A DNA stretch of 64,000 nt, taken from Candidatus Brocadia pituitae. Its GTDB lineage: Bacteria > Planctomycetota > Brocadiia > Brocadiales > Brocadiaceae. Location of the stretch: the NCBI GenBank assembly GCA_017347445.1, contig AP021856.1, positions 2,674,613-2,738,612 on the forward strand. The letters run 5' to 3'. A program made the position numbers and the translations under genes. Under the pieces are notes generated by a model, which saw only the letters and a list, made by a program, of their open reading frames with translations, made no database searches and was not told where the DNA came from. This document shows, piece after piece, positions 2,683 to 26,526 of this stretch (positions are counted from its first letter, which is position 1; every line of letters begins with the position of its first letter).

Positions 2683-5286
2683 TTAGGAAGTTGACGAGGA
2701 GCGCTCTATTCCATCATGAAGGTTCCGCTTGATGGCATCGGCAAGCAACTGCATGCTAACCGGTTTAGTAACATAATCGTTCATGCCAGACTCAAGACAC
2801 TTCTCGCGGTCACCGTTCATAGCATTGGCAGTCATGGCGATTATGGGAATATTATGATTTCTAACAGATGAATTCTCATTACGGATGATACGGGTAGCCT
2901 CATAACCGTCCAACTCTGGCATCTGGCAATCCATCAGGACAAGGTTGTAATCCAATCTTTCCAGCGATTCGATGGCCTCCTTCCCATTAGTAACGACATC
3001 GGCCTCATATCCAAATTTTTTCTCTAAAATTCTCATGACAATCTTCTGATTGATAATGTTGTCCTCTGCCACGAGGATGCGAAGACTTCGCTTATGATCC
3101 TCGGATAGGGAATAACGCGTAACGATCTGTACTGAGGCATCTTTACCTGCACTTGCAGTTGCTCCGGTAATAATTCTGAGAGATTCAAACAACTGTGACT
3201 GTTTTATCGGCTTGAGCAGATACGCCGCAAATCCCAGCCTCTTAAAATATTCAGCATCGCCACGCATACCAACCGAAGTCAGTATCGCCAGGATCAGGTC
3301 TTTGAGTTGCGGATCGGCCTTGATTTCCCGGCACAGTGATTCTCCATCCACCTCCGGCATACAACGGTCAAGCAAGGCAATCTGAAATGGATTGCCATCA
3401 TGGATAGCCGCATGAAGCTTTTTCATCGCTTCATTAGCCGAGGCAGCCTCATCAACCCGGCAACGCCACGATTCGAGATATGCCCGAAAGATATGCCGGT
3501 TCGTTTGATTGTCATCAACAACCAGCACGTGTATATTTTCTATGATGCCAGGTTCATATGGCGTCCGTTGCCGGACAGAAGGTTGTTTTTCCAGTATTAT
3601 AGTAAACCAGAACGTTGAGCCCTTACCCTCTTCACTTTCCACACCTATTTGACCACCCATCATCACGGTAAGCTGTTTGGAAATCGCCAACCCAAGTCCG
3701 GTGCCGCCGTACATCCTGGTAGTAGAAGAATCTAGCTGGGAAAATGACTGGAACAAACGCCCCATACGATCGGAAGGGATCCCGATACCGGTGTCTCTGA
3801 CAGCAAACCGCAAGGTTACCTGCGAATCAGTTTCTTTGTCCAGGGTTATACTGATGGCAACATCGCCGTCGTTCGTAAATTTTATGGCGTTGTTAGCAAG
3901 GTTAATTAACACCTGTCGCAACCGGCCAGGGTCTCCCCGTAAAAGCGAAGGAACTTCAGGATCAATAAAACAAGAAAATTCCAGACCTTTCTTCTCTGCC
4001 CCGATGACCAGGAAGTCGATAGTACCTTCCACAACAATGCACAAATCGAAGTCGATGTTTTCTATCTCCAGTTTGCCAGACTCTATCTTGGAAAAATCCA
4101 GGATATCATTGATAATAGACAGCAAGGAATTGGCACAATTGCGAACCGACACTGCATAATCATGCTGTTCCTGAGTCAATTCCGTATCGAGCAACAGATC
4201 CGTCATACCTATGATACCGTTCATCGGCGTGCGTATCTCGTGACTCATGTTGGCAAGAAATTCACCCTTGGCACGGCTGGCTTCATCCGCCAACTTCCTA
4301 GCCTTTTCCAACTCATTATTCTTTTCTTCAACATTCCCTTTTTGTATTTCGAGTTCTTCGTAGTATCGCAACAGCTCTTTATGTCGCAACTGCAATTCTT
4401 CTTCGGTTTGCTTTAGACCGGTAATATCATTGAAAATCTCCAAAACCGCCTTTTTCCCTTTATATATTAAACCAACATGAGTTATCTGAAATACTTTCCC
4501 GCCTAAGATACCTTCTGATTCAATAGTTTCTGTCTTTCCTGCTCTCACACCTTCCTTCAGAAAACAATTATCACACTTTTTTTTGTTGTCGCGATAAATA
4601 TTCCAGCATTTTTCCCCTATTACCTTTTTACCCAAAATGGTTTCATATTTCTTGTTCACATAGAGGATATTACCTTCCTCGTCAACAATATCCAAACCAA
4701 AGGGAAGAGAACTAATAAGGGTTTGGTTGAAATTACTAAACTCCCGCAGTGCATCTTCCGCTTTTTTACGCTCGGTAATATCCTGAACCGTTCCATTCAT
4801 CTGGACGAACTTCCCTGTGTTGTCAAAAGGGGCTTCACCCTGTCCATGGACAAAGCGTATCGAACCATCTGGTAAAATTATTCGAAAGTCAATGCTGTGA
4901 GGCTTCTTCTCATCCAGGGACTCACTAACAGATTTTTTCACATGCTCTCTATCACCGGGATGAACAGAATCAAGGAATGCTTCATACGTTGCAGTAAATT
5001 TCTGACGAATTAAACCAAAAATGCGATAGGTCTCATCAGACCACCATAATCTATTTTTCCCTATGTCCCATTCCCAATTCCCAATGTGGGCAATTCGTTG
5101 AGCATTGGCGAGGCGTGCTTCGCTTTTCCTTAATGATTCCTCCACACGTTTACGCTCCGATAGTTCACCATATAATTTATCTGCTTGTTCAAGTGCGGTT
5201 TTTTCGTATACCTCTAGTAGCTGCTCCAAAGCGGCTATTTGAGACATAAGGTATTGAACTTCTGTATTTCCAGTACTATTTTCCAT
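2683..5286 (-). CDS. Hybrid sensor histidine kinase (PAS-PAS-HisKA-HATPase-REC-REC)
   Basis: An approximately 867-residue soluble hybrid kinase. Counting from the chosen ATG, it has an N-terminal coiled coil, a PAS/PAC domain (about 55-175), a second PAS (about 185-295) with the cluster CWNIYRDNKKKCDNC, another coiled coil, and a HisKA domain with His349 in SHEIRTPMNG. The ATPase domain has N-box NLANNAIKF and G1 box DTGIGIP. Two receiver domains follow, with LLDRCMPEVDG and LMDCQMPELDG around the acceptor Asp. There is no transmembrane segment, so it senses inside the cell. An in-frame ATG 42 bases upstream exists, but the start at 5286 has a GGAAAGAG site nine bases before it. It partly overlaps the upstream gene only if the longer start is used. 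Confidence 0.92.
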   Translation of the reverse strand: MENSTGNTEVQYLMSQIAALEQLLEVYEKTALEQADKLYGELSERKRVEESLRKSEARLANAQRIAHIGNWEWDIGKNRLWWSDETYRIFGLIRQKFTATYEAFLDSVHPGDREHVKKSVSESLDEKKPHSIDFRIILPDGSIRFVHGQGEAPFDNTGKFVQMNGTVQDITERKKAEDALREFSNFNQTLISSLPFGLDIVDEEGNILYVNKKYETILGKKVIGEKCWNIYRDNKKKCDNCFLKEGVRAGKTETIESEGILGGKVFQITHVGLIYKGKKAVLEIFNDITGLKQTEEELQLRHKELLRYYEELEIQKGNVEEKNNELEKARKLADEASRAKGEFLANMSHEIRTPMNGIIGMTDLLLDTELTQEQHDYAVSVRNCANSLLSIINDILDFSKIESGKLEIENIDFDLCIVVEGTIDFLVIGAEKKGLEFSCFIDPEVPSLLRGDPGRLRQVLINLANNAIKFTNDGDVAISITLDKETDSQVTLRFAVRDTGIGIPSDRMGRLFQSFSQLDSSTTRMYGGTGLGLAISKQLTVMMGGQIGVESEEGKGSTFWFTIILEKQPSVRQRTPYEPGIIENIHVLVVDDNQTNRHIFRAYLESWRCRVDEAASANEAMKKLHAAIHDGNPFQIALLDRCMPEVDGESLCREIKADPQLKDLILAILTSVGMRGDAEYFKRLGFAAYLLKPIKQSQLFESLRIITGATASAGKDASVQIVTRYSLSEDHKRSLRILVAEDNIINQKIVMRILEKKFGYEADVVTNGKEAIESLERLDYNLVLMDCQMPELDGYEATRIIRNENSSVRNHNIPIIAMTANAMNGDREKCLESGMNDYVTKPVSMQLLADAIKRNLHDGIERSSSTS

Positions 5287-5305
5287 AATAACAATCTCTT
5301 TCCGC

Positions 5306-6055
5306 TCATGCGAATACCGCATTTTCAAATGGCAATACTGCTATTTTTATATTTAGTGACAGGGTCTTGAAAAAATTGGCCACCTCCTTCGAAACGGGAA
5401 CCTTAAGGAACATAATAACTGCAAAAAGATCTCCTGATGGGAGTACTCCGCCGAACCCTAATACGGATTTTATACCGTAGGGTATGACAAATTCTTTCTG
5501 AGCTGGAATGTGGAGACTGTCAGTCGCCTCGGATACATGGAAGACGTTATAGGTATTCTGCCCAGAATCCAAGAGAAGTTTTGGGTCTGGTTTGACAATC
5601 ATGCTAATACTTAATCCTAATTGTAAAATAAGGGTCCGGATCATCGGGATCTGCTGAACTGACTGTTCACTCGGCAATGGAATTGCTTTGTGCCCCTTTG
5701 AGGTTTTCCTGGAATTCCACTCCGGGTTTTCCCCATCTGTAGCCAGGAGGGTAAGGCATTTCATGTCAGGTAAAATAGAGTAGTCCCCGAGCATACTCCT
5801 TGAAAAGTTTTGAAGTTCGTCATCGAGTTTTTCGTAAGTATGGGTTTTGAAAAAACGAACTAAAGAAGATGCCCGATTCCCGCTTGCTCCATCAATCAGA
5901 TTATTGTACAAATAGTGAACAATTCTGCTAGCTACTTCTTCCATGTTCTTGGCACCTTTTCCAATATTTCGAAGGGTTCTCCCGCATTCGGTCATATCAC
6001 GTATAGTAAAATTTACTAAGTCACAACTCGCATACTTTTCATTTTGAGTATTCAT
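5306..6055 (-). CDS. Hypothetical sensor-like protein, partner of hybrid kinase
   Basis: A 249-residue soluble protein that I do not recognise with certainty. The C-terminal half, with hydrophobic strands around VIPYGIKSVLGFGGVLPSGD and LFAVIMFLKVPVS, has the feel of a GAF-like ligand-sensing fold; this is an impression, not a motif match. It ends about 20 bases before the chosen kinase start, so the two are almost certainly co-transcribed. A role as an accessory input to the kinase is inferred from position. There is no signal peptide or membrane segment. Confidence 0.75.
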   Translation of the reverse strand: MNTQNEKYASCDLVNFTIRDMTECGRTLRNIGKGAKNMEEVASRIVHYLYNNLIDGASGNRASSLVRFFKTHTYEKLDDELQNFSRSMLGDYSILPDMKCLTLLATDGENPEWNSRKTSKGHKAIPLPSEQSVQQIPMIRTLILQLGLSISMIVKPDPKLLLDSGQNTYNVFHVSEATDSLHIPAQKEFVIPYGIKSVLGFGGVLPSGDLFAVIMFLKVPVSKEVANFFKTLSLNIKIAVLPFENAVFA

Positions 6056-6200
6056 AATTCGTTTTTATCCACTATGAATGTAACAATTTCTTGTTGCAAT
6101 ACCCACTGCTTGATTTATTTTTACCAGAATCATGGAGTGATTTATCTATTTTTTTATTTTTCTGCATACCCTCTCTCCTAAATTACCAGGTTTACACTGC

Positions 6201-6641
6201 TCAGTTATATTCCGCGTATTTCTGTGCCAAATCTTTACTATTTTTTTTTAGGAGTACGACAAAATGTTTTTCTGCCTCTCTGTACCGCTGCTGATTGTGA
6301 AGTTCAATGGCAAGCCATAATCTTACACTCCGGTCATCGGGTGTTATTTTTATCATGCTATTCAAGACCTTTATCGCTTCCTTTCTCTTTTCCGCTCGTA
6401 TTAATATTTTTCCGAGACAGTAGTATGAATTGATTTCCTTTCGGCCTGGTACTTTTCTCATCATGGCGTTGTAGAGCATCATGACCTTATCAGCATCAGG
6501 GGACTCAGCGCCCTCGTACAGTAATTGTAAAAGGATCTCATTTTTGTAAACCCATCGAAAAGCACCCCAGAATATTCCAAAATAGAAGAGAAAGAAGATT
6601 ACAATGAACCACTTGTTGCGAATGAGTTTGCTTGAGTTCAT
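6201..6641 (-). CDS. Membrane-anchored TPR protein
   Basis: A 146-residue protein with one N-terminal transmembrane helix (about 10-32, WFIVIFFLFYFGIFWGAF) followed by two or three TPR-like helical hairpins (YYCLGKILIRAEKRKEAIKV, RLWLAIELHNQQRYREAEKH). It probably faces the periplasm. It starts nine bases after a small ORF that itself follows the cellulose-synthase-like gene, so it is probably part of that exopolysaccharide operon. TPR proteins commonly act as scaffolds in such export systems. The precise partner is unknown. Confidence 0.75.
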   Translation of the reverse strand: MNSSKLIRNKWFIVIFFLFYFGIFWGAFRWVYKNEILLQLLYEGAESPDADKVMMLYNAMMRKVPGRKEINSYYCLGKILIRAEKRKEAIKVLNSMIKITPDDRSVRLWLAIELHNQQRYREAEKHFVVLLKKNSKDLAQKYAEYN

Positions 6642-15727: not shown

Positions 15728-15916
15728 ATGATTTTGGTAAGGAATGGAATTTATGGGCGTACAAATGCAAAAGCATATTTAAAAAACCCTAAAATGCCGA
15801 AGCTAAAACCTGTAGATGTTGACGCAATGGCGGTTTCAAGGGCAATGCATCTGTGTATACCTGAGCATATAAGAATTCAACTGGAGTTAGACGAAATTGA
15901 TAAAAATGAATGTTAG
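15728..15916 (+). CDS. Small ORF ahead of the subtilase gene
   Basis: A possible 62-residue protein; a shorter form could start at an internal ATG at 15794. The C-terminal part (PVDVDAMAVSRAMHLCIPEH) has protein-like composition. It ends 34 bases before the protease start and so could be co-transcribed. No family is recognised, and it has no signal peptide. A decayed or fortuitous frame is the alternative. Confidence 0.38.
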   Translation: MILVRNGIYGRTNAKAYLKNPKMPKLKPVDVDAMAVSRAMHLCIPEHIRIQLELDEIDKNEC

Positions 15917-15950
15917 CGCCGTAACAACTACTATCGCAAAGGAGGTTCGC

Positions 15951-18272
15951 ATGCCCAGTTCACTTAACACCAGATTGCTGACGTTAAAGTCTCTTGATAA
16001 CCTGCCCAAGCGACTCAATGCCGTGAATAAGGCAGCATTGATGCGTGCACAACAATTCCGCATAAAGACGGAACTTGATCCAGCTAAACTTGCTGAAGCA
16101 AAAAAGAAGGCTTTAGACACCGTAAAAAAAGCCAAAGCTAAAGCAGCCGCCCGGCGTCCGGTTGCCATAGCGAGAACCATAGATCAGCAAATCCAGTCTT
16201 TATTAGAGAACAGAAAGCGCATCATGCAATCATTGCAAGATGACTCCCGTCGAGCGCCAGCAGAAACCATCAAATCTTTCCTCGACCGTGCTCGACGCAA
16301 TCGGCGCAAGCTCACGCGCGCTGAGATGGCATCGCTTTTGATACGCAGCAACCACAAAGATGTCGATAGCTTCACTAACGAACTTGCAAAGATAATGGGC
16401 CTGCGCTCAGTCGGCGATATGACTGCACTCAATATCCAGACGCGCCAAGTGTCTCCTAAGCGCGATGGTATAGGGGCAGTGTATTCGGTGCGTTTACCGA
16501 TCAAACGAAGTAGTGTAGTTAAGGAAATTCATAACTTCGCATGGGCCTTGCGCAAGTCTAAACGTTTCACATCAGTCAGGCCGGACGGCTCGCGCAAGAT
16601 GATGTTTCAGGTGGAATTGACTCATGCGCGACGCGCTGAGCGAGTGTTTGCATGGCCATTATTGCTTACTCGCGTGCTCGAAGCCCATGCGCTGCAGCCA
16701 CAACCAAATGGACGAAGATTCGGTGAAGGGATCGTCATCGCTCATCCCGATACCGGTTGGGCGCCTCATCCGCAATACAACGAGAATCGCATCGATATGG
16801 TTGGAGCACGGCGTTTCAATGCCGGAACCGAAACTGCCGGTGGGCAAGCAGCCCGTCACTCGATCCGTCTTGATGACCTCGGAATTTTTGGTATAACACA
16901 CGGCACAGGGGCCGGTTCCGTGATTATCGGTGGCACTGGTATTGGAGATGGCAGTTCTGAGATTCCCGAGGATGAGCTTGTATTCCCTGAGGTAGCTGGT
17001 TTTCGTGTGTATTTAGGGCTAAGGAATCCTATTGATCCCAATGGTGCACTAACTGGCGTTGCGCCAATGGCTACAGTGCGACCGATCAAGTTCATAGACG
17101 ATACATGGGGAGATATCGATAGCACCGGTCTGAACGGCATCAGCGTTGTCCGTATTTTCGATGAGGATCTCGTCGCTGCGATCAACTACGCTCGTGCTTC
17201 TGGCGCGCACATCGTAAGCCTCAGTATCGGTGGCCTCATGCACGATAACGTCCGCGAGGCGATTAATCTTGCGGTTGAAAGCAATCTGATCATCGTGGCG
17301 GCCGCCGGCCAGACCTTCACCATGGAAGAATTTAACGAAATAAGTCAGGCTGCCGCCGGTTTAGGGATTCCGGTTGGCGATACGGTTCTTTTGCCAGCCG
17401 CTTATGCAAATGTAATCGCGGTTGCAGGTTGTTCTGCGGACGGACGCCCGTGGCACGAGAGTTTGCGGGGTCCCAACGTTGATATCACTGCACCAGCGGA
17501 TGGATTGTGGGTCGCTGAATTCGATACCGAGAGGGCAGACCAAGAGGGAAATGGCTTGCCGTTGGTTCAGGCTGCGTCTGGGACTTCCTTGTCTGCCACC
17601 TTCATGGCCGGTGTTGCAGCTCTATGGCTCGCGCACTGGGGACGGGATGAGCTGCTTAGACGGTATGCAGGAACCCCACTCGCGTGGGTTTTCAGACACC
17701 AACTACAGCGTACGGCAAACGCAGCCCATGCAAACGAATGGGATCGGACCAACTATGGCCCCGGCGTCGTCAATGTCCGCGCGCTGCTAGAGGAGCCGTT
17801 GCCAAATCTGCGTGATGTGCAGTCACCACCAGCGACAACAGCAAACGTCTTCACTGTCGCATCTGAAATACTGGGCATTCCGGCGGAGGGGAACGGTGAC
17901 GTATGGGCCATCATTAACGACTTAGTCAATTTGACCGCTGGCATGCTTGAGGCGTTTGGCGAAGCAGCGTGGGCTGCGGCGCGTGCCGTAGCGGAAACAA
18001 TGATTGGAATGGGCCAGCAAGCGCTGGAGGATTTACACGCATTCGCGGACGCGGCTGGCGGAGTCATCGATCAGACAACTCGTGAGGCCTTAGATACTGT
18101 TAGTGGCTTCGTGGAGGCAGCAGCGGAAGTAGCAGAGGATGTTGCCCAAGCTGCGGCTGAAGCAGGTGATGGTGCAGTTGATGCAGTTGTGGACTTTGCG
18201 GAAGACACTGTTGATGCGGTTGGCGAAGCCGCAGAAGACGTTGTCGATTTCCTCTTTGGGTGGGCCAGCTAA
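15951..18272 (+). CDS. Subtilisin-like S8 protease with unusual flanking domains
   Basis: A 773-residue serine protease. The catalytic triad is complete: Asp267 (HPDTGW), His317 (THGTGAG) and Ser546 (ASGTSLSATFMAG). The oxyanion-hole Asn position is not obvious. The first about 250 residues form a Lys/Arg-rich, helical extension unlike a secretion signal or common propeptide. The last about 120 residues are Ala/Glu/Asp-rich amphipathic helix repeats (AAAEVAEDVAQAAAEAG). AAAGGAGG five bases before ATG 15951 fixes the start; an earlier ATG in frame lacks such a site. The gene is visibly richer in G and C than its neighbours, suggesting acquisition by transfer. Function is unknown. Confidence 0.88.
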   Translation: MPSSLNTRLLTLKSLDNLPKRLNAVNKAALMRAQQFRIKTELDPAKLAEAKKKALDTVKKAKAKAAARRPVAIARTIDQQIQSLLENRKRIMQSLQDDSRRAPAETIKSFLDRARRNRRKLTRAEMASLLIRSNHKDVDSFTNELAKIMGLRSVGDMTALNIQTRQVSPKRDGIGAVYSVRLPIKRSSVVKEIHNFAWALRKSKRFTSVRPDGSRKMMFQVELTHARRAERVFAWPLLLTRVLEAHALQPQPNGRRFGEGIVIAHPDTGWAPHPQYNENRIDMVGARRFNAGTETAGGQAARHSIRLDDLGIFGITHGTGAGSVIIGGTGIGDGSSEIPEDELVFPEVAGFRVYLGLRNPIDPNGALTGVAPMATVRPIKFIDDTWGDIDSTGLNGISVVRIFDEDLVAAINYARASGAHIVSLSIGGLMHDNVREAINLAVESNLIIVAAAGQTFTMEEFNEISQAAAGLGIPVGDTVLLPAAYANVIAVAGCSADGRPWHESLRGPNVDITAPADGLWVAEFDTERADQEGNGLPLVQAASGTSLSATFMAGVAALWLAHWGRDELLRRYAGTPLAWVFRHQLQRTANAAHANEWDRTNYGPGVVNVRALLEEPLPNLRDVQSPPATTANVFTVASEILGIPAEGNGDVWAIINDLVNLTAGMLEAFGEAAWAAARAVAETMIGMGQQALEDLHAFADAAGGVIDQTTREALDTVSGFVEAAAEVAEDVAQAAAEAGDGAVDAVVDFAEDTVDAVGEAAEDVVDFLFGWAS

Positions 18273-21759: not shown

Positions 21760-21967
21760 ATCTCCCCTTCCGTATAAATGGTTTTTTGGTATTCTAGTGG
21801 CAATTATTGATAAACCCGCTGTGTTTGTCAAACGATTTTTGGGATATTTGACTGAGTTCTTCAACCATTGACCGTCCTGAAATTATGTTGCGAATAAAAA
21901 AAGGCTTGAGAAGTTGACTGAAGAAGGTTAAAAAAACATGGTAGGCGATGCCTACCCCCCCAAGCTG

Positions 21968-22745
21968 TAGGGTCAAGGAATGGCGAGTTGCATTAGGTAT
22001 CCCCTTGTCTGTTTCTGCCGTTTCCAGCTTTGTGCCCGTTTAGGTTCTCCATAGTACTTTTCCATCCCCTGCCACATCAAACCGTACGTGAGGTTTTCCC
22101 TCATACGGCGTTCCTGTTCCCTTCTCAGCAAGGCATATCCACTAATCGACCAAGAGTCAATCGGTCTTCGCCTTGCTGTATATCTTTCCCCTCAGTTCCT
22201 GTAGACTTATGGAAGTTTTTATCATTCTTCCCTACTTCATCTCCAAAGAAAGATTTGAGATACAGCAGAGTCCCTTCGTCCCGGTCAGGTTATGATGTCC
22301 TTACCATCTTCACTACTACGGACTCATCCGCCACCCTCTCGCCTGTCAGCCTACTTCGTCTTTCGACTTATAAGGCTTACCTTGCTCCTGATACTTCTCT
22401 CAGGGACGAGGAGGGCTTCCCCAGTTGATTGCGTCTCTTTCTATCCGTGTCGCCGCTGATACCCCGTCACCGTCCTTATACCTTATTAACCAGTATGGCA
22501 AAAGAATTCTGTCTTCGCCTATTTGTGAAAGGCTCGACCAGCGAAATCACACCTTTACGAGGCTACTTCTACGTTCACGTACGTTACGACCCGGATATTC
22601 GCTCACCGGCCTTACGCCGACTTTGTCGATGGGCTTCAGAAGGCCACGTTTCCATCACCCCCTGCCATCCATGCTACATGGCTCTGGCTTCTACCATGAC
22701 GGGACTTCCACCCGCAAGAAGACACTACCCTTCGCTGGGCACGCG
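21968..22745 (-). mobile_element. ORF-less group II intron relic, copy B
   Basis: On the minus strand this unit begins GTGCCCAGCGAAGG and ends GACCCTAC, as group II introns do. It contains domain-I-like GCGGGTGGAAGTCCCG and the GGCGGATGAGTCCGTAG motif usually found near the start of the intron-encoded reverse transcriptase. A textbook domain V hairpin is at 22080-22109 (GCCGTATGAGG, GAAAA loop, CCTCACGTACGG). At about 778 bases it has no reverse transcriptase ORF, so it would depend on another copy for mobility. Confidence 0.75.
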
Positions 22746-23524
22746 TAGGGTCAAGGAATGGCGAGTTGCATTAGGTATCTCCTTGGCTGTTACTGCCGTT
22801 TCCAGCTTTGTGCCCGTTTAGGTTCTCCATAGTACTTTTCCATCCCCTGCCACATCAAACCGTACGTGAGGTTTTCCCTCATACGGCTTTCCTGCTCCCT
22901 TCTCAGCAAGGCATATCCACCAATCGACCCCAAGAGCGATCGGTCTTCGCCTTGCTGTATATCTTTCCCCTCAGTTCCTGTAGACTTATGGAAGTTTTTA
23001 TCATTCTTCCCTACCTCACCTCCAAAGAAAGATTTGAGATACAGCAGAGTCCCTTCGCTCCGGTCAGGTTGTGTTGTCCTTACCATCTTCACTACTACGG
23101 ACTCATCCGCCACCCTCTCGCCTGTCAGCCTACTTCGCCTTTCGACTTATAAGGCTTACCTTGCTCCTGATACTTCCATCAGGGACGAGGAGGGCTTCCC
23201 CAGTTGATTGCGTCTCTTTCTATCCGTGTCGCCGCTGATACCCCGTCACCGTCCTTATACCTTATTAACCAGTATGGTAAAAGAATTCTGTCTTCGCCTA
23301 TTTGTGAAAGGCTCGACCAGTGAAATCACACCTTTACGAGGCTACTTCTACGTTCACGTTCGTTACAACCCGGATAGTTGCTCGCCTGCCTTATTGCAGA
23401 CTTTGTCGATGGGCTTCAGATGGCAACGTTTCCATCACCCCCTGCCATCCATGCTACATGGCTCTGGCTTTTACCATAACGGGACTTCCACCCGCAAGAA
23501 GACACTACCCTTCGCTGGGCACGC
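22746..23524 (-). mobile_element. ORF-less group II intron relic, copy A
   Basis: A head-to-tail copy of the unit at 21968-22745 with a small number of substitutions. Domain V is at 22858-22887. The open frames seen across both copies on either strand come from structured RNA and are not genes. Copies A and B abut exactly. Confidence 0.75.
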
Positions 23525-23602: not shown

Positions 23603-25105
23603 TTATCGTCCGCATTGGCGGTGATTTTTTATTGCCTGGGAGAGTAATTCCAGAGGGGTATCTTGTCTTGGCAGAGGAGTATTGGAAGATTGCTCAAGCG
23701 AAATCCTATATGCACTAGCAATGGAGCGCAAAAATCTTTCAACCAGACTACGCATATAATCGCATGACGCAGAAGCTCCTGGTATTTCCGATCGAATAAC
23801 GCATCCTTTGTACCGCTCGAAATCTTCTCCAAGGCAACCATAGCACAGTAGTTGAGCCCAGCATTTCTGACAGGATTCGTTTGCGTACTTATCCGCGTCC
23901 GCTATAAAGCGCTTAATCTTTTCTTTTTCTTTGCCAACACTAGACACTTGATCGAGGATATTGAGAGGGATTTTCGGTTTTGGTTCAATCTGCGATCCAT
24001 TGACATTGCCAAAACTATACGCGTCGCACTGCATAAGCATAAAACACGCATACACATTACCATCGGCATTGACAGTAATTTCCGATTGTCCAGCAGGACA
24101 GTAATTCCAAATTGGTATCTTATCAATCAAACTATTCAGTATTCGTACTGCAATAGATACAGCTTTTGGAATTCCTCGAACTAAGTTCAAGATGGAGTAT
24201 TCGATTGCGTCTCCCTGTAGTCTTGAACAGACATCAAATGGAATGAACTCAGGATTGTCAGGAGAGGCAGACACAACAGGGCAATGCAATATGCGACAGC
24301 CGAACTCATCGTGAAAGAAATCCATCAAAGAAGTAATCTCGAAACCAAGTCGTAAATGATCTGCGGTATATGTACACTCGAATTCAACATTTAGTCCGCG
24401 GTCTAGAAATCGTTTCGCGTTGTGCATCACAGCCTCGTATGAACCTTTTCCTGATTTGGTAGGACGTTTAAGATCGTGAATTTTCTTTGGTCCGTCAAGA
24501 CTGAGCGTTACAGTGAATCCATAACCAGTCAGAATTTCAAGCATACGGTCGTCGATTGCATAACCATTCGTTGTGATCCCAAAACTTGGCACGTAAGCAA
24601 GTATTCCTTGTGTATGTAAGTAGCGGACATATTCACAAACAACCTCTATAATATCTCTATTTAGGGTGGGTTCTCCACCAAAGAAATTGATGTGTTCTAT
24701 CCGTGAATAGACCCGAACCGCCCAGTTTATCGCGTTCAGTGCAGTCTCCTTTGTCATCATCAGTCCGTTCATATTATAATAGGTGCCCATTGAAGCATAG
24801 CAATATGAGCAGCCAAGATTGCAAACATTACTGATCGATAACGTGAGACGGTCAAGAACTGGGTGCGGATCACAAGGTGTTCCAGTAGATGGATGTATGA
24901 GGTCGTACTCACTATGTAAACTGTTTCCTACTATTTCCTTATGCAATAACCGCTGAAATTCAGCATTGCCACCCACGGAGAGCTCATTCCAAGACACTCT
25001 GGAATTCACTTCTTTCAATGGGAGCAGCACTACACTAAAGTCTTTTTTGCGGAATAAAATGCTCAAATCATCTTGTTCGAAAATTTGGATTTCGCCGACT
25101 GACAT
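23603..25105 (-). CDS. Radical SAM/SPASM peptide-modifying enzyme
   Basis: A 500-residue enzyme of the radical S-adenosylmethionine class. The 4Fe-4S motif CNLGCSYC has Cys95, Cys99 and Cys102, followed by FFGGEPTLN (SAM contacts, about 141-149). The C-terminal SPASM region is Cys-rich (Cys336, 354, 360, 412, 415, 421, 424, 435, 448) and should hold two auxiliary clusters. An N-terminal domain of about 85 residues may bind a leader peptide. SPASM enzymes usually install thioether or carbon-carbon crosslinks in ribosomal peptides. It follows the CGCGCGCGC protein gene by 95 bases on the same strand, so that protein is the likely substrate. Confidence 0.92.
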   Translation of the reverse strand: MSVGEIQIFEQDDLSILFRKKDFSVVLLPLKEVNSRVSWNELSVGGNAEFQRLLHKEIVGNSLHSEYDLIHPSTGTPCDPHPVLDRLTLSISNVCNLGCSYCYASMGTYYNMNGLMMTKETALNAINWAVRVYSRIEHINFFGGEPTLNRDIIEVVCEYVRYLHTQGILAYVPSFGITTNGYAIDDRMLEILTGYGFTVTLSLDGPKKIHDLKRPTKSGKGSYEAVMHNAKRFLDRGLNVEFECTYTADHLRLGFEITSLMDFFHDEFGCRILHCPVVSASPDNPEFIPFDVCSRLQGDAIEYSILNLVRGIPKAVSIAVRILNSLIDKIPIWNYCPAGQSEITVNADGNVYACFMLMQCDAYSFGNVNGSQIEPKPKIPLNILDQVSSVGKEKEKIKRFIADADKYANESCQKCWAQLLCYGCLGEDFERYKGCVIRSEIPGASASCDYMRSLVERFLRSIASAYRISLEQSSNTPLPRQDTPLELLSQAIKNHRQCGR

Positions 25106-25200
25106 GACATCCTCCCTCTAAATCTACTTTATTTTTCCGCTATTTACTGAGCAGCTCATCCAAGTAGATGAGCTGCCCAGATTTAAGCGGCCTCAGTTTT

Positions 25201-25821
25201 CTAAGCCTCACGCTGCTTAGAAAAGAGACGCCCTATATTATAGTACCTGCTGTTTACACGCTCAGTGATAGAATCTGAAACTTTCTGATAACTCTCCAAA
25301 AAATCCGCCACTAAAAGAGTGTCTCTTACTTTAGCCGGAGTGTCAAGTTCGTTGAACGGATCAATTGAATATGGTTTCGTCTGATGATGGAGGGCGATTT
25401 TCTCTTGATAAGTTAGATTCCCCATCGCACGGCATCCACATCCACAGCCACACCCGCAGTTATCAGCTAAGTTGACTTTGCTAAAATAGGTTGCTTCAGG
25501 ATCTTCCGCAATTTGCCTAGCAAGTCTGTGTAACAAAGTGGATGTTTCAAGAACTGGCAGTTCCATCATGACCAGTAATGAAACCTGATCTGCAAAATCT
25601 ATGGACTTTCCTACCTCCTTTAGATCCTTGAGATGGCTTTGTCGCGGCTCGATCAGTTGTGTTTTGAAATTTTCATTTGCAATTTCCTGAAGTTCCTTTG
25701 GATTGTCAGTTGAGGGTAATCGAAACTCGGGACGCTTTTGCCTCTCCCTAATCCACTTATCATATAGCAGTACTGCGAGTTTTTGAGATTTCTGTTTGTT
25801 TATTTCATTTTCGATCATCAT
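25201..25821 (-). CDS. Cys-Gly repeat protein, candidate modified substrate
   Basis: A 206-residue soluble protein with five alternating Cys residues (Cys122, 124, 126, 128, 130) in NCGCGCGCGCR, set in the middle of an otherwise ordinary helical sequence. The block is encoded by mixed Cys and Gly codons, so it is not simple DNA slippage. No other Cys is present. AGGGAGAG lies before the ATG; the start may be either of two adjacent ATGs. Immediate placement before the radical SAM/SPASM gene suggests it is the substrate, with crosslinks or a metal site built in the repeat. It is long for a peptide precursor, so an active protein carrying the modification is equally possible. I do not recognise the family. 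Confidence 0.85.
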   Translation of the reverse strand: MMIENEINKQKSQKLAVLLYDKWIRERQKRPEFRLPSTDNPKELQEIANENFKTQLIEPRQSHLKDLKEVGKSIDFADQVSLLVMMELPVLETSTLLHRLARQIAEDPEATYFSKVNLADNCGCGCGCGCRAMGNLTYQEKIALHHQTKPYSIDPFNELDTPAKVRDTLLVADFLESYQKVSDSITERVNSRYYNIGRLFSKQREA

Positions 25822-26060: not shown

Positions 26061-26270
26061 TCAACGGGTGAAAACCATCCAGCGGTTGAGGGTAGCCGCT
26101 CGCCGTTCGCAACCTCCGCAGGGCTTGATCCCAAAATAGGAGGTCGCCCGTTTAATCACATCGCCAAGCCCGATCTCCTCGTCTATAATAAACCCGGGCA
26201 GGCACACCCGGTGAGGCCGGATGACCGCTCAGGCTTGGGGTACACCTTAGCCTTCGCCTTCCTTTGTCAT
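26061..26270 (-). pseudogene. Small CGGC-motif protein gene, interrupted by frameshifts
   Basis: AAGGAGG precedes ATG 26270 at good spacing. The frame reads MTKEGEG then hits a stop. The next frame gives KVYPKPERSSGLTGCACPG, then the first frame resumes with IIDEEIGLGDVIKRAT and SYFGIKPCGGCERRAATLN to a stop at 26061. All three pieces look like one small protein of about 69 residues broken by two compensating indels. The GLGDVxKR...PCGGCxxRA pattern resembles a short Cys-motif protein I recall from various bacterial genomes. It could be a decayed gene, a sequencing error, or a real short gene starting at an internal GTG. Confidence 0.55.
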
Positions 26271-26351
26271 ACGATTTACCTCCTTGCATTCGCTGTTAAC
26301 AGGGATTGGTAGGCCGCATAGACTCATTTGCCAACACTTTTCTTTACTCGT

Positions 26352-26408
26352 AAAAACAAAAAAGCCTTACTGCAAAGGTTTTTCACAAACATCTTCGGCA
26401 GTAAGGCT
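26352..26408 (-). terminator. Terminator hairpin of the riboswitch
   Basis: An 11-base stem, AGCCTTACTGC with GCAGTAAGGCT, is followed on the minus strand by a TTTTTTGTTTTT tract. It sits seven bases after the aptamer's closing stem, as an expression platform would. Confidence 0.78.
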
Positions 26409-26414
26409 GTCTTT

Positions 26415-26526
26415 TTACGACTTAATAGTCAGGATATAGTTATCTTCTCTTAAAAACTACATCCCTGTATAAGAAGACCCTGTTACTTTGCGTCCCCTGA
26501 TCACTCAGGGTTTGCCTTTATCGTAA
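26415..26526 (-). ncRNA. Cyclic-dinucleotide riboswitch, GEMM-I (c-di-GMP-I) class
   Basis: Read on the minus strand, the segment has the GEMM-I core in order: GGCAAACC, a short helix CUGA-GUGA-UCAG with a GNRA tetraloop, then GGGACGCAAAG and a CAGGGUCU segment. A second helix UCUUCU/AGAAGA follows. UUACGA (26521-26526) and UCGUAA (26415-26420) close the whole domain as P1. The classical ligand is cyclic-di-GMP; a variant subgroup binds 3',3'-cyclic AMP-GMP. Here the base just before GGCAAACC is A where the Vibrio Vc2 RNA has G, which may bear on ligand choice. It lies upstream of the CGGC gene and the Cys-Gly/radical SAM pair. Confidence 0.8.

What the first reader, a model, noticed from the sequence alone, without database searches (positions are those of the whole stretch)
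23603..25821. Radical SAM/SPASM enzyme paired with a CGCGCGCGC protein
The 206-residue protein carries all five of its Cys in one alternating Cys-Gly block, with varied codons showing protein-level selection. The next gene is a SPASM enzyme with enough Cys for two auxiliary clusters. This fits a ribosomally made, post-translationally crosslinked product or a metal-binding modified protein. The block sits mid-protein, not at the C-terminus as in usual precursors, and I recall no described family with this layout.
Basis: partly seen in the sequence, partly recalled or inferred. Interest (0 to 1): 0.88.

Follow-up and report, generated by a model that had tools for sequence, protein, structure and literature searches.

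The report
Orphan radical-SAM enzyme with Cys-Gly-block protein
A bacterium carries a two-gene unit in which a radical-SAM enzyme probably modifies a neighbouring 206-residue protein whose five cysteines all lie in one Cys-Gly-Cys-Gly stretch, a pairing with only one distant counterpart found and matching no catalogued family.

Summary
A 206-aa ORF (25201-25821, minus strand) has all five Cys at 122/124/126/128/130 (NCGCGCGCGCR). Next to it, 95 bp downstream on the same strand, is a 500-aa radical SAM/SPASM enzyme (23603-25105) with ligands for two auxiliary clusters. A very stable hairpin (-36 kcal/mol, z -6.2) sits between them.

The 206-aa protein has no detectable relative in the genome, its relatives, plasmids, phages or the 85,000-species scan, and matches no Pfam, NCBIfam, PHROG or PADLOC model. 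The enzyme is far below every curated NCBIfam cut-off; its closest relatives are thioether-forming maturases (PapB, CteB/SCIFF, QhpD), and Foldseek's best solved match is CteB.

Of 112 radical-SAM loci compared, its nearest relative (L154, same order, 30% identity) also neighbours a short protein with a mid-protein CGCG..C block; none of the other 111 has a genuine CGCG neighbour.

I think the enzyme builds thioether crosslinks in the Cys block and the product stays protein-sized. The chemistry is inferred; Asp/Glu-type ranthipeptide links are unlikely because only Gly separates the Cys. The nearby c-di-GMP riboswitch is a relic of another cluster.

Verdict: new variant of a known kind. Phage radical-SAM genes also pair with Cys-dense proteins.

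The parts
25201..25821 (-). 206-aa protein, putative substrate; all five Cys in one CGCGCGCGC block
   Evidence: ORF, SD-like AAGGGAG upstream, codon score/GC like neighbouring genes; no family or relative found
25432..25458 (-). CGCGCGCGC block (residues 122-130)
   Evidence: differences between repeat units are all synonymous
25151..25177 (-). core of a strong stem-loop in the 95-bp gap between substrate and enzyme genes; no T-run, so a likely mRNA stabiliser/attenuator rather than a full terminator (inference)
   Evidence: fold -36.2 kcal/mol, z -6.2, 0 of 200 shuffles; unique in the window
23603..25105 (-). 500-aa radical SAM/SPASM enzyme, putative maturase
   Evidence: PF04055 and PF13186 above cut-offs; below all NCBIfam equivalog cut-offs, best PapB 161.8 vs 340; nearest PDB sequence and fold CteB 5wgg/5why
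24800..24823 (-). CX3CX2C radical SAM cluster motif CNLGCSYC (residues 95-102)
23762..24100 (-). SPASM Cys set (C336, C354, C412, C415, C421, C424, C435, C448)

Best explanation
The two genes form a modification unit. The SPASM enzyme acts on the CGCGCGCGC block of the 206-residue protein and installs radical-generated thioether links from Cys sulfurs to backbone alpha-carbons within or just beside the block (Gly or flanking residues). This gives a rigid, thiol-poor segment inside a protein that stays largely full length, more like the QhpD/QhpC (protein subunit) case than an exported leader/core peptide. Shown: the genes, the motif, the SPASM ligands, the relation to thioether-forming maturases, and a second divergent enzyme/CGCG-protein pair. 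Inferred: that this protein is the substrate, that the product is a thioether, and that no leader is removed.
For: Same strand, 95-bp gap, stable stem-loop between them. Enzyme's best families are PapB, nif11-maturase, SCIFF and QhpD; best solved relatives by sequence and fold are CteB structures. Full SPASM Cys set. The nearest enzyme among all loci held, L154 (170 bits against 145 for the next), is about 120 bp from a 107-aa protein with mid-protein ECGCGGQGHHC. 0 of 111 other radical-SAM loci have a genuine CGCG neighbour; the one regex hit is an out-of-frame ORF inside an annotated enzyme gene. The tree groups the window enzyme with L154 and one faecal contig, 93/88. Glycine is a known acceptor in sactipeptides (PMC8326336). 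By analogy, phage SPASM genes repeatedly neighbour alternating- or dense-Cys proteins.
Against: The 206-aa and 107-aa partners are not detectably homologous outside the CGCG motif, so the second pair may be convergent. Only two pairs are known. The L154 enzyme lacks most of the CX2CX5C ligands. L154 and the faecal contig are long branches whose join the tree program flags as unsafe. Structure prediction of the 206-aa protein is uninformative (pLDDT 37) and the enzyme's N-terminal recognition region is unresolved (pLDDT under 50 for residues 1-78). No modification can be observed by computation.
Confidence: 0.5

Rival explanations
1. The enzyme modifies the 206-residue protein, but by other radical chemistry: epimerisation, Cys oxidation, beta-carbon or C-C links to flanking residues, so the Cys block is not thioether-bridged internally.
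For: The SPASM fold also serves anSME (Cys to formylglycine), ChlB, TigE and SuiB, all hit by Foldseek. Gly between the Cys has no beta-carbon, which rules out PapB-type links inside the block. PapB needs Cys N-terminal to Asp/Glu with 0-6 residues between (PMC9413430), and the first acidic residue after the block is E140, with nine residues between it and C130.
Against: Closest families and structures by score are thioether formers.
Confidence: 0.22
2. The Cys-Gly block is an unmodified metal- or Fe-S-binding ligand loop, and the enzyme serves the protein in another way or is a functional partner using it as cofactor donor.
For: Alternating Cys puts thiols on one face; five Cys without Asp/Glu acceptors; intact thiols would bind soft metals (established chemistry).
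Against: No metal transporter, regulator or resistance gene is adjacent. Neighbouring a SPASM maturase, in two divergent cases, is unexpected for a simple metal binder.
Confidence: 0.15
3. The two genes are neighbours by chance in a gene-poor, rearranged region and do not act together.
For: The region is unstable: group II intron remnants, a broken PatG-type cluster, no synteny left of RecQ in four relatives. The pair is absent from all 10 genus-mates searched.
Against: Same strand, short gap with structured RNA, similar codon use and GC, and a second CGCG-protein/enzyme pair with the genes in reverse order.
Confidence: 0.13

Closest known systems
PapB/PapA ranthipeptides (NF047865)
   Same: SPASM maturase beside a multi-Cys substrate; best-scoring curated family (161.8 bits)
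   Different: Far below the cut-off of 340; PapA has Cys-X3-Asp/Glu repeats, here the Cys are separated only by Gly
CteB/ScfB SCIFF maturases (TIGR03974; PDB 5wgg, 5why)
   Same: Nearest solved structure by sequence and fold
   Different: 123 vs cut-off 425; the SCIFF substrate has six Cys in forty-five residues, here five alternating Cys mid-way in 206 residues
QhpD/QhpC (quinohemoprotein amine dehydrogenase)
   Same: Thioether maturase acting on a protein subunit rather than a cleaved peptide; 118 bits
   Different: Cut-off 453; no QHNDH subunits nearby; Cys-Gly block instead of Cys-to-acidic links
Sactipeptides (e.g. streptosactin/GggB)
   Same: S-to-alpha-carbon links that can use Gly as acceptor; GggB model matches weakly (89 vs 650)
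   Different: Known precursors have leaders of 8-29 and cores of 26-44 residues; this protein is 206 residues with the block in the middle
L154 pair (genome G046, same order)
   Same: Enzyme 30-35% identical beside a 107-aa protein with mid-protein CGCG..C
   Different: Gene order reversed, substrate unrelated outside the motif, auxiliary-cluster ligands partly lost

Membership tests
Radical SAM/SPASM superfamily | CX3CX2C motif and Radical_SAM domain | tested here: met
   PF04055 80.5 bits vs 29.5; C95/C99/C102
Radical SAM/SPASM superfamily | SPASM domain with ligands for two auxiliary clusters | tested here: met
   PF13186 26.1 vs 21.5; CX12GX4C, CX2CX5CX2C (canonical last spacing X3), later Cys 435/448
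PapB-type ranthipeptide system | Maturase above NF047865 cut-off | tested here: not met
   161.8 vs 340 bits
PapB-type ranthipeptide system | Cys-Xn-Asp/Glu acceptor motifs in substrate | tested here: not met
   No Asp/Glu within six residues after any Cys of the block; first is E140
SCIFF system | TIGR03974 maturase and six-Cys-in-forty-five peptide | tested here: not met
   123 vs 425 bits; five Cys, 206 aa
QhpD/QHNDH | TIGR03906 maturase with amine dehydrogenase subunit genes adjacent | tested here: not met
   118 vs 453 bits; no such genes in the window
Sactipeptide | Short precursor with N-terminal leader and core | tested here: not met
   206 aa with mid-protein Cys block; known sizes from PMC8326336
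Sactipeptide / thioether RiPP | S-to-carbon thioether present in product | not testable with these tools
   Needs mass spectrometry or NMR
Radical SAM RiPP maturase | N-terminal RiPP recognition element | tested here: inconclusive
   About 85 N-terminal residues precede the radical SAM core, modelled with pLDDT under 50

The most novel reading that the evidence does not exclude
Founding member of a class of protein-sized radical SAM/SPASM substrates whose alternating Cys-Gly block is turned into a ladder of short thioether rings (S to Gly alpha-carbon), with an analogous alternating-Cys (CxCxCxC) substrate type in phages.
Probability: 0.2. Interest if true: 0.85.

Novelty: new variant of a known kind. 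Interest (0 to 1): 0.52.

Why it matters
If the Cys-Gly block is crosslinked, it would be a substrate geometry not covered by the curated families searched here: thiol donors separated by single glycines, inside a folded-size protein. The two-gene unit is small enough for direct co-expression and mass spectrometry. The recurring pairing of SPASM enzymes with alternating- or dense-Cys proteins, including phage proteins, suggests a wider, testable substrate class.

Tried and rejected
(1) c-di-GMP regulation of the pair: a c-di-GMP-I-GGC riboswitch lies upstream (26393-26525, minus), but the same riboswitch heads a PatG-like cluster in two genus-mates (L144, L145). In the window it is followed by a broken remnant of that cluster and a terminator at 26046-26023. 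I reject it as part of this unit. (2) DNA pattern search for CGCGCGCGC in the phylum and in viral contigs: many low-complexity matches, no second convincing pair. (3) Protein searches for the 206-aa substrate and scans of 85,000 species with both proteins: nothing. (4) Homology between the 206-aa and 107-aa substrates: not detectable. (5) AlphaFold of the 206-aa protein alone: mean pLDDT 37, uninformative. (6) LodA-like clusters (name from memory) on rhizobial plasmids carry some of the next-best enzymes, but their partners have no Cys-Gly block. (8) Literature: no held paper combines radical SAM RiPPs with a CGCGC core. (9) A second phylum search with the two-enzyme profile, which largely redrew the same genomes, found no third pair.

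Full report
What is there. On the minus strand of the window a 206-aa ORF (25201-25821) is followed after 95 bp by a 500-aa ORF (23603-25105). All five Cys of the first protein form NCGCGCGCGCR (residues 122-130). The second has CX3CX2C, a Radical_SAM domain and a SPASM domain above their Pfam cut-offs, and Cys ligands sufficient for two auxiliary clusters. Both ORFs have Shine-Dalgarno-like sequences and codon use and GC compatible with the neighbouring genes. The gap contains a 15-bp hairpin (-36.2 kcal/mol, z -6.2, no shuffle as stable) that is unique in the window. It lacks a T-run, so I read it as an mRNA-stabilising or attenuating element of a shared transcript; that reading is an inference.

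Is the motif special? The string alone is not. At DNA level 25 of 392 phylum genomes hold a (TGYGGN)4TGY match, mostly obvious low-complexity repeats or unconvincing frames, none beside a radical SAM gene among those inspected. The window block differs between units only at synonymous positions, and the five Cys are the protein's only Cys.

Relatives of the substrate. None were found in the same genome or 58 relatives, plasmids or phages by tblastn, viral contigs or the 84,980-species collection. There is no match in Pfam, NCBIfam, PHROGs or PADLOC. The collection scans find close relatives only, so distant homologues could be missed.

Relatives of the enzyme. It scores below every NCBIfam cut-off shown; the best are PapB (161.8 vs 340), nif11-peptide maturase, SCIFF maturase and QhpD. 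The nearest solved protein by sequence is CteB (1.8e-22), and Foldseek with the model (mean pLDDT 68, radical SAM core mostly over 90) again puts CteB first, then anSME and ChlB. No genus- or family-mate has a match at E<=1e-30. In 392 phylum genomes only three other genomes match at E<=1e-28, so the gene was probably acquired horizontally or lost widely. Left of RecQ (27424) nothing in the window aligns with the corresponding region of four relatives, consistent with a variable region.

A second pair. The best relative, L154 in genome G046 (same order, another family), is 32% identical over the aligned length and clearly ahead of all other enzymes held (170 bits against 145). About 120 bp after it lies a 107-aa protein, MEKSPPK...GGIEECGCGGQGHHCATEVGG..., with its three Cys in a mid-protein CGCG..C block. 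Of 111 other radical-SAM loci I gathered, none has a genuine CGCG neighbour; the single regex hit lies out of frame inside an annotated enzyme gene. The two substrates are not detectably related outside the motif, gene order is reversed, and the L154 enzyme has lost most of the CX2CX5C ligands. A tree groups window, L154 and a faecal contig enzyme (L226, 93/88), with a long-branch warning for the last two. L226 neighbours a short GG-type precursor ending FICWC.

How it probably works. The closest characterised relatives form Cys thioethers, and the substrate is a tight row of Cys next to such an enzyme, so thioether crosslinking is the leading reading. PapB-type beta/gamma-carbon links need an acidic residue after the Cys within 0-6 residues (PMC9413430); none is present, and Gly has no beta-carbon. 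Sactipeptide-type S-to-alpha-carbon links can use Gly as acceptor (PMC8326336). I therefore favour alpha-carbon links within or at the edges of the block, in a protein that remains largely whole: the block is central in both pairs, and no dedicated protease or exporter lies next to either. I put 0.5 on this full statement, and would put about 0.8 on the narrower claim that the enzyme acts on this protein.

Context that is not part of it. A c-di-GMP-I-GGC riboswitch and a small broken ORF (IKPCGGCERR) lie upstream. Intact copies in relatives belong to a subtilisin / 72-aa protein / PatG_D-PatG_C cluster, headed by the same riboswitch in two of them, so these are remnants of a different system. 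Group II intron pieces lie just downstream of the enzyme.

A wider pattern. In viral contigs, 36 of 54 SPASM-type loci retrieved with the window/L154 profile have a neighbouring Cys-dense protein (26 with at least six Cys in 30 residues, plus 10 with a C-terminal CxCxCxC), against 3 of 181 more distant ORFs with at least six Cys in 30 residues. A 67-aa phage family ending DDYNTVCECQCQCACSRGTL, searched on its own, has a radical SAM ORF in 23 of 23 loci, 19 of them immediately downstream. The contigs are related, so these are not independent events, but they show that alternating-Cys proteins do co-occur with SPASM enzymes and lend the window pair support by analogy.

Verdict. A real, orphan, unannotated two-gene unit; most likely a new variant of SPASM-enzyme protein modification. 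Novel in substrate layout, not in enzyme class; chemistry unproven.

Noticed in passing
L311-L333 (matches near 4001-4204) and L180, L184-L186, L190, L196, L198-L200, L203: Phage 67-aa protein family ending in a conserved CxCxCxC tail (...FYDDYNTVCECQCQCACSRGTL); in all 23 loci found with it a radical SAM/SPASM ORF is present, 19 immediately downstream, often with a second radical SAM gene.
   Followed up: partly
L160-L219: Phage-contig SPASM enzymes lie beside Cys-dense proteins in 36 of 54 loci, against 3 of 181 distant ORFs; several have long CxxC or CNTCQxC repeats.
   Followed up: partly
L172:2817-3440 and 4977-6323: 207-aa phage protein ending CNCECTCTCTCTGTCGCTCECTCTCDCATCG, a few genes upstream of a radical SAM/SPASM enzyme.
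   Followed up: no
window 26393-26525 (-) and 26064-26271 (-): c-di-GMP-I-GGC riboswitch followed by a remnant of a PatG-like cluster: small Cys protein broken by two in-frame stops; intact in relatives (L144-L147), riboswitch also present in L144 and L145.
   Followed up: yes
window 21967-23524 (-): Two tandem, 96-97% identical copies of group II intron sequence without a reverse transcriptase, directly downstream of the enzyme gene.
   Followed up: no
window 15897-18272 (+): 791-aa subtilisin-family protein with a long N-terminal extension and an Ala-rich C-terminal tail, GC 53.5% against 41.6% for the window: a likely foreign gene.
   Followed up: no
L156 (genome G009) and L269:2617-2928 (genome G119): Radical SAM genes beside Tat-signal-like proteins with Cys repeats (CDPGTNNPDVCDPPN; CTGCTGSCTGC) in genomes of the same phylum.
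   Followed up: no
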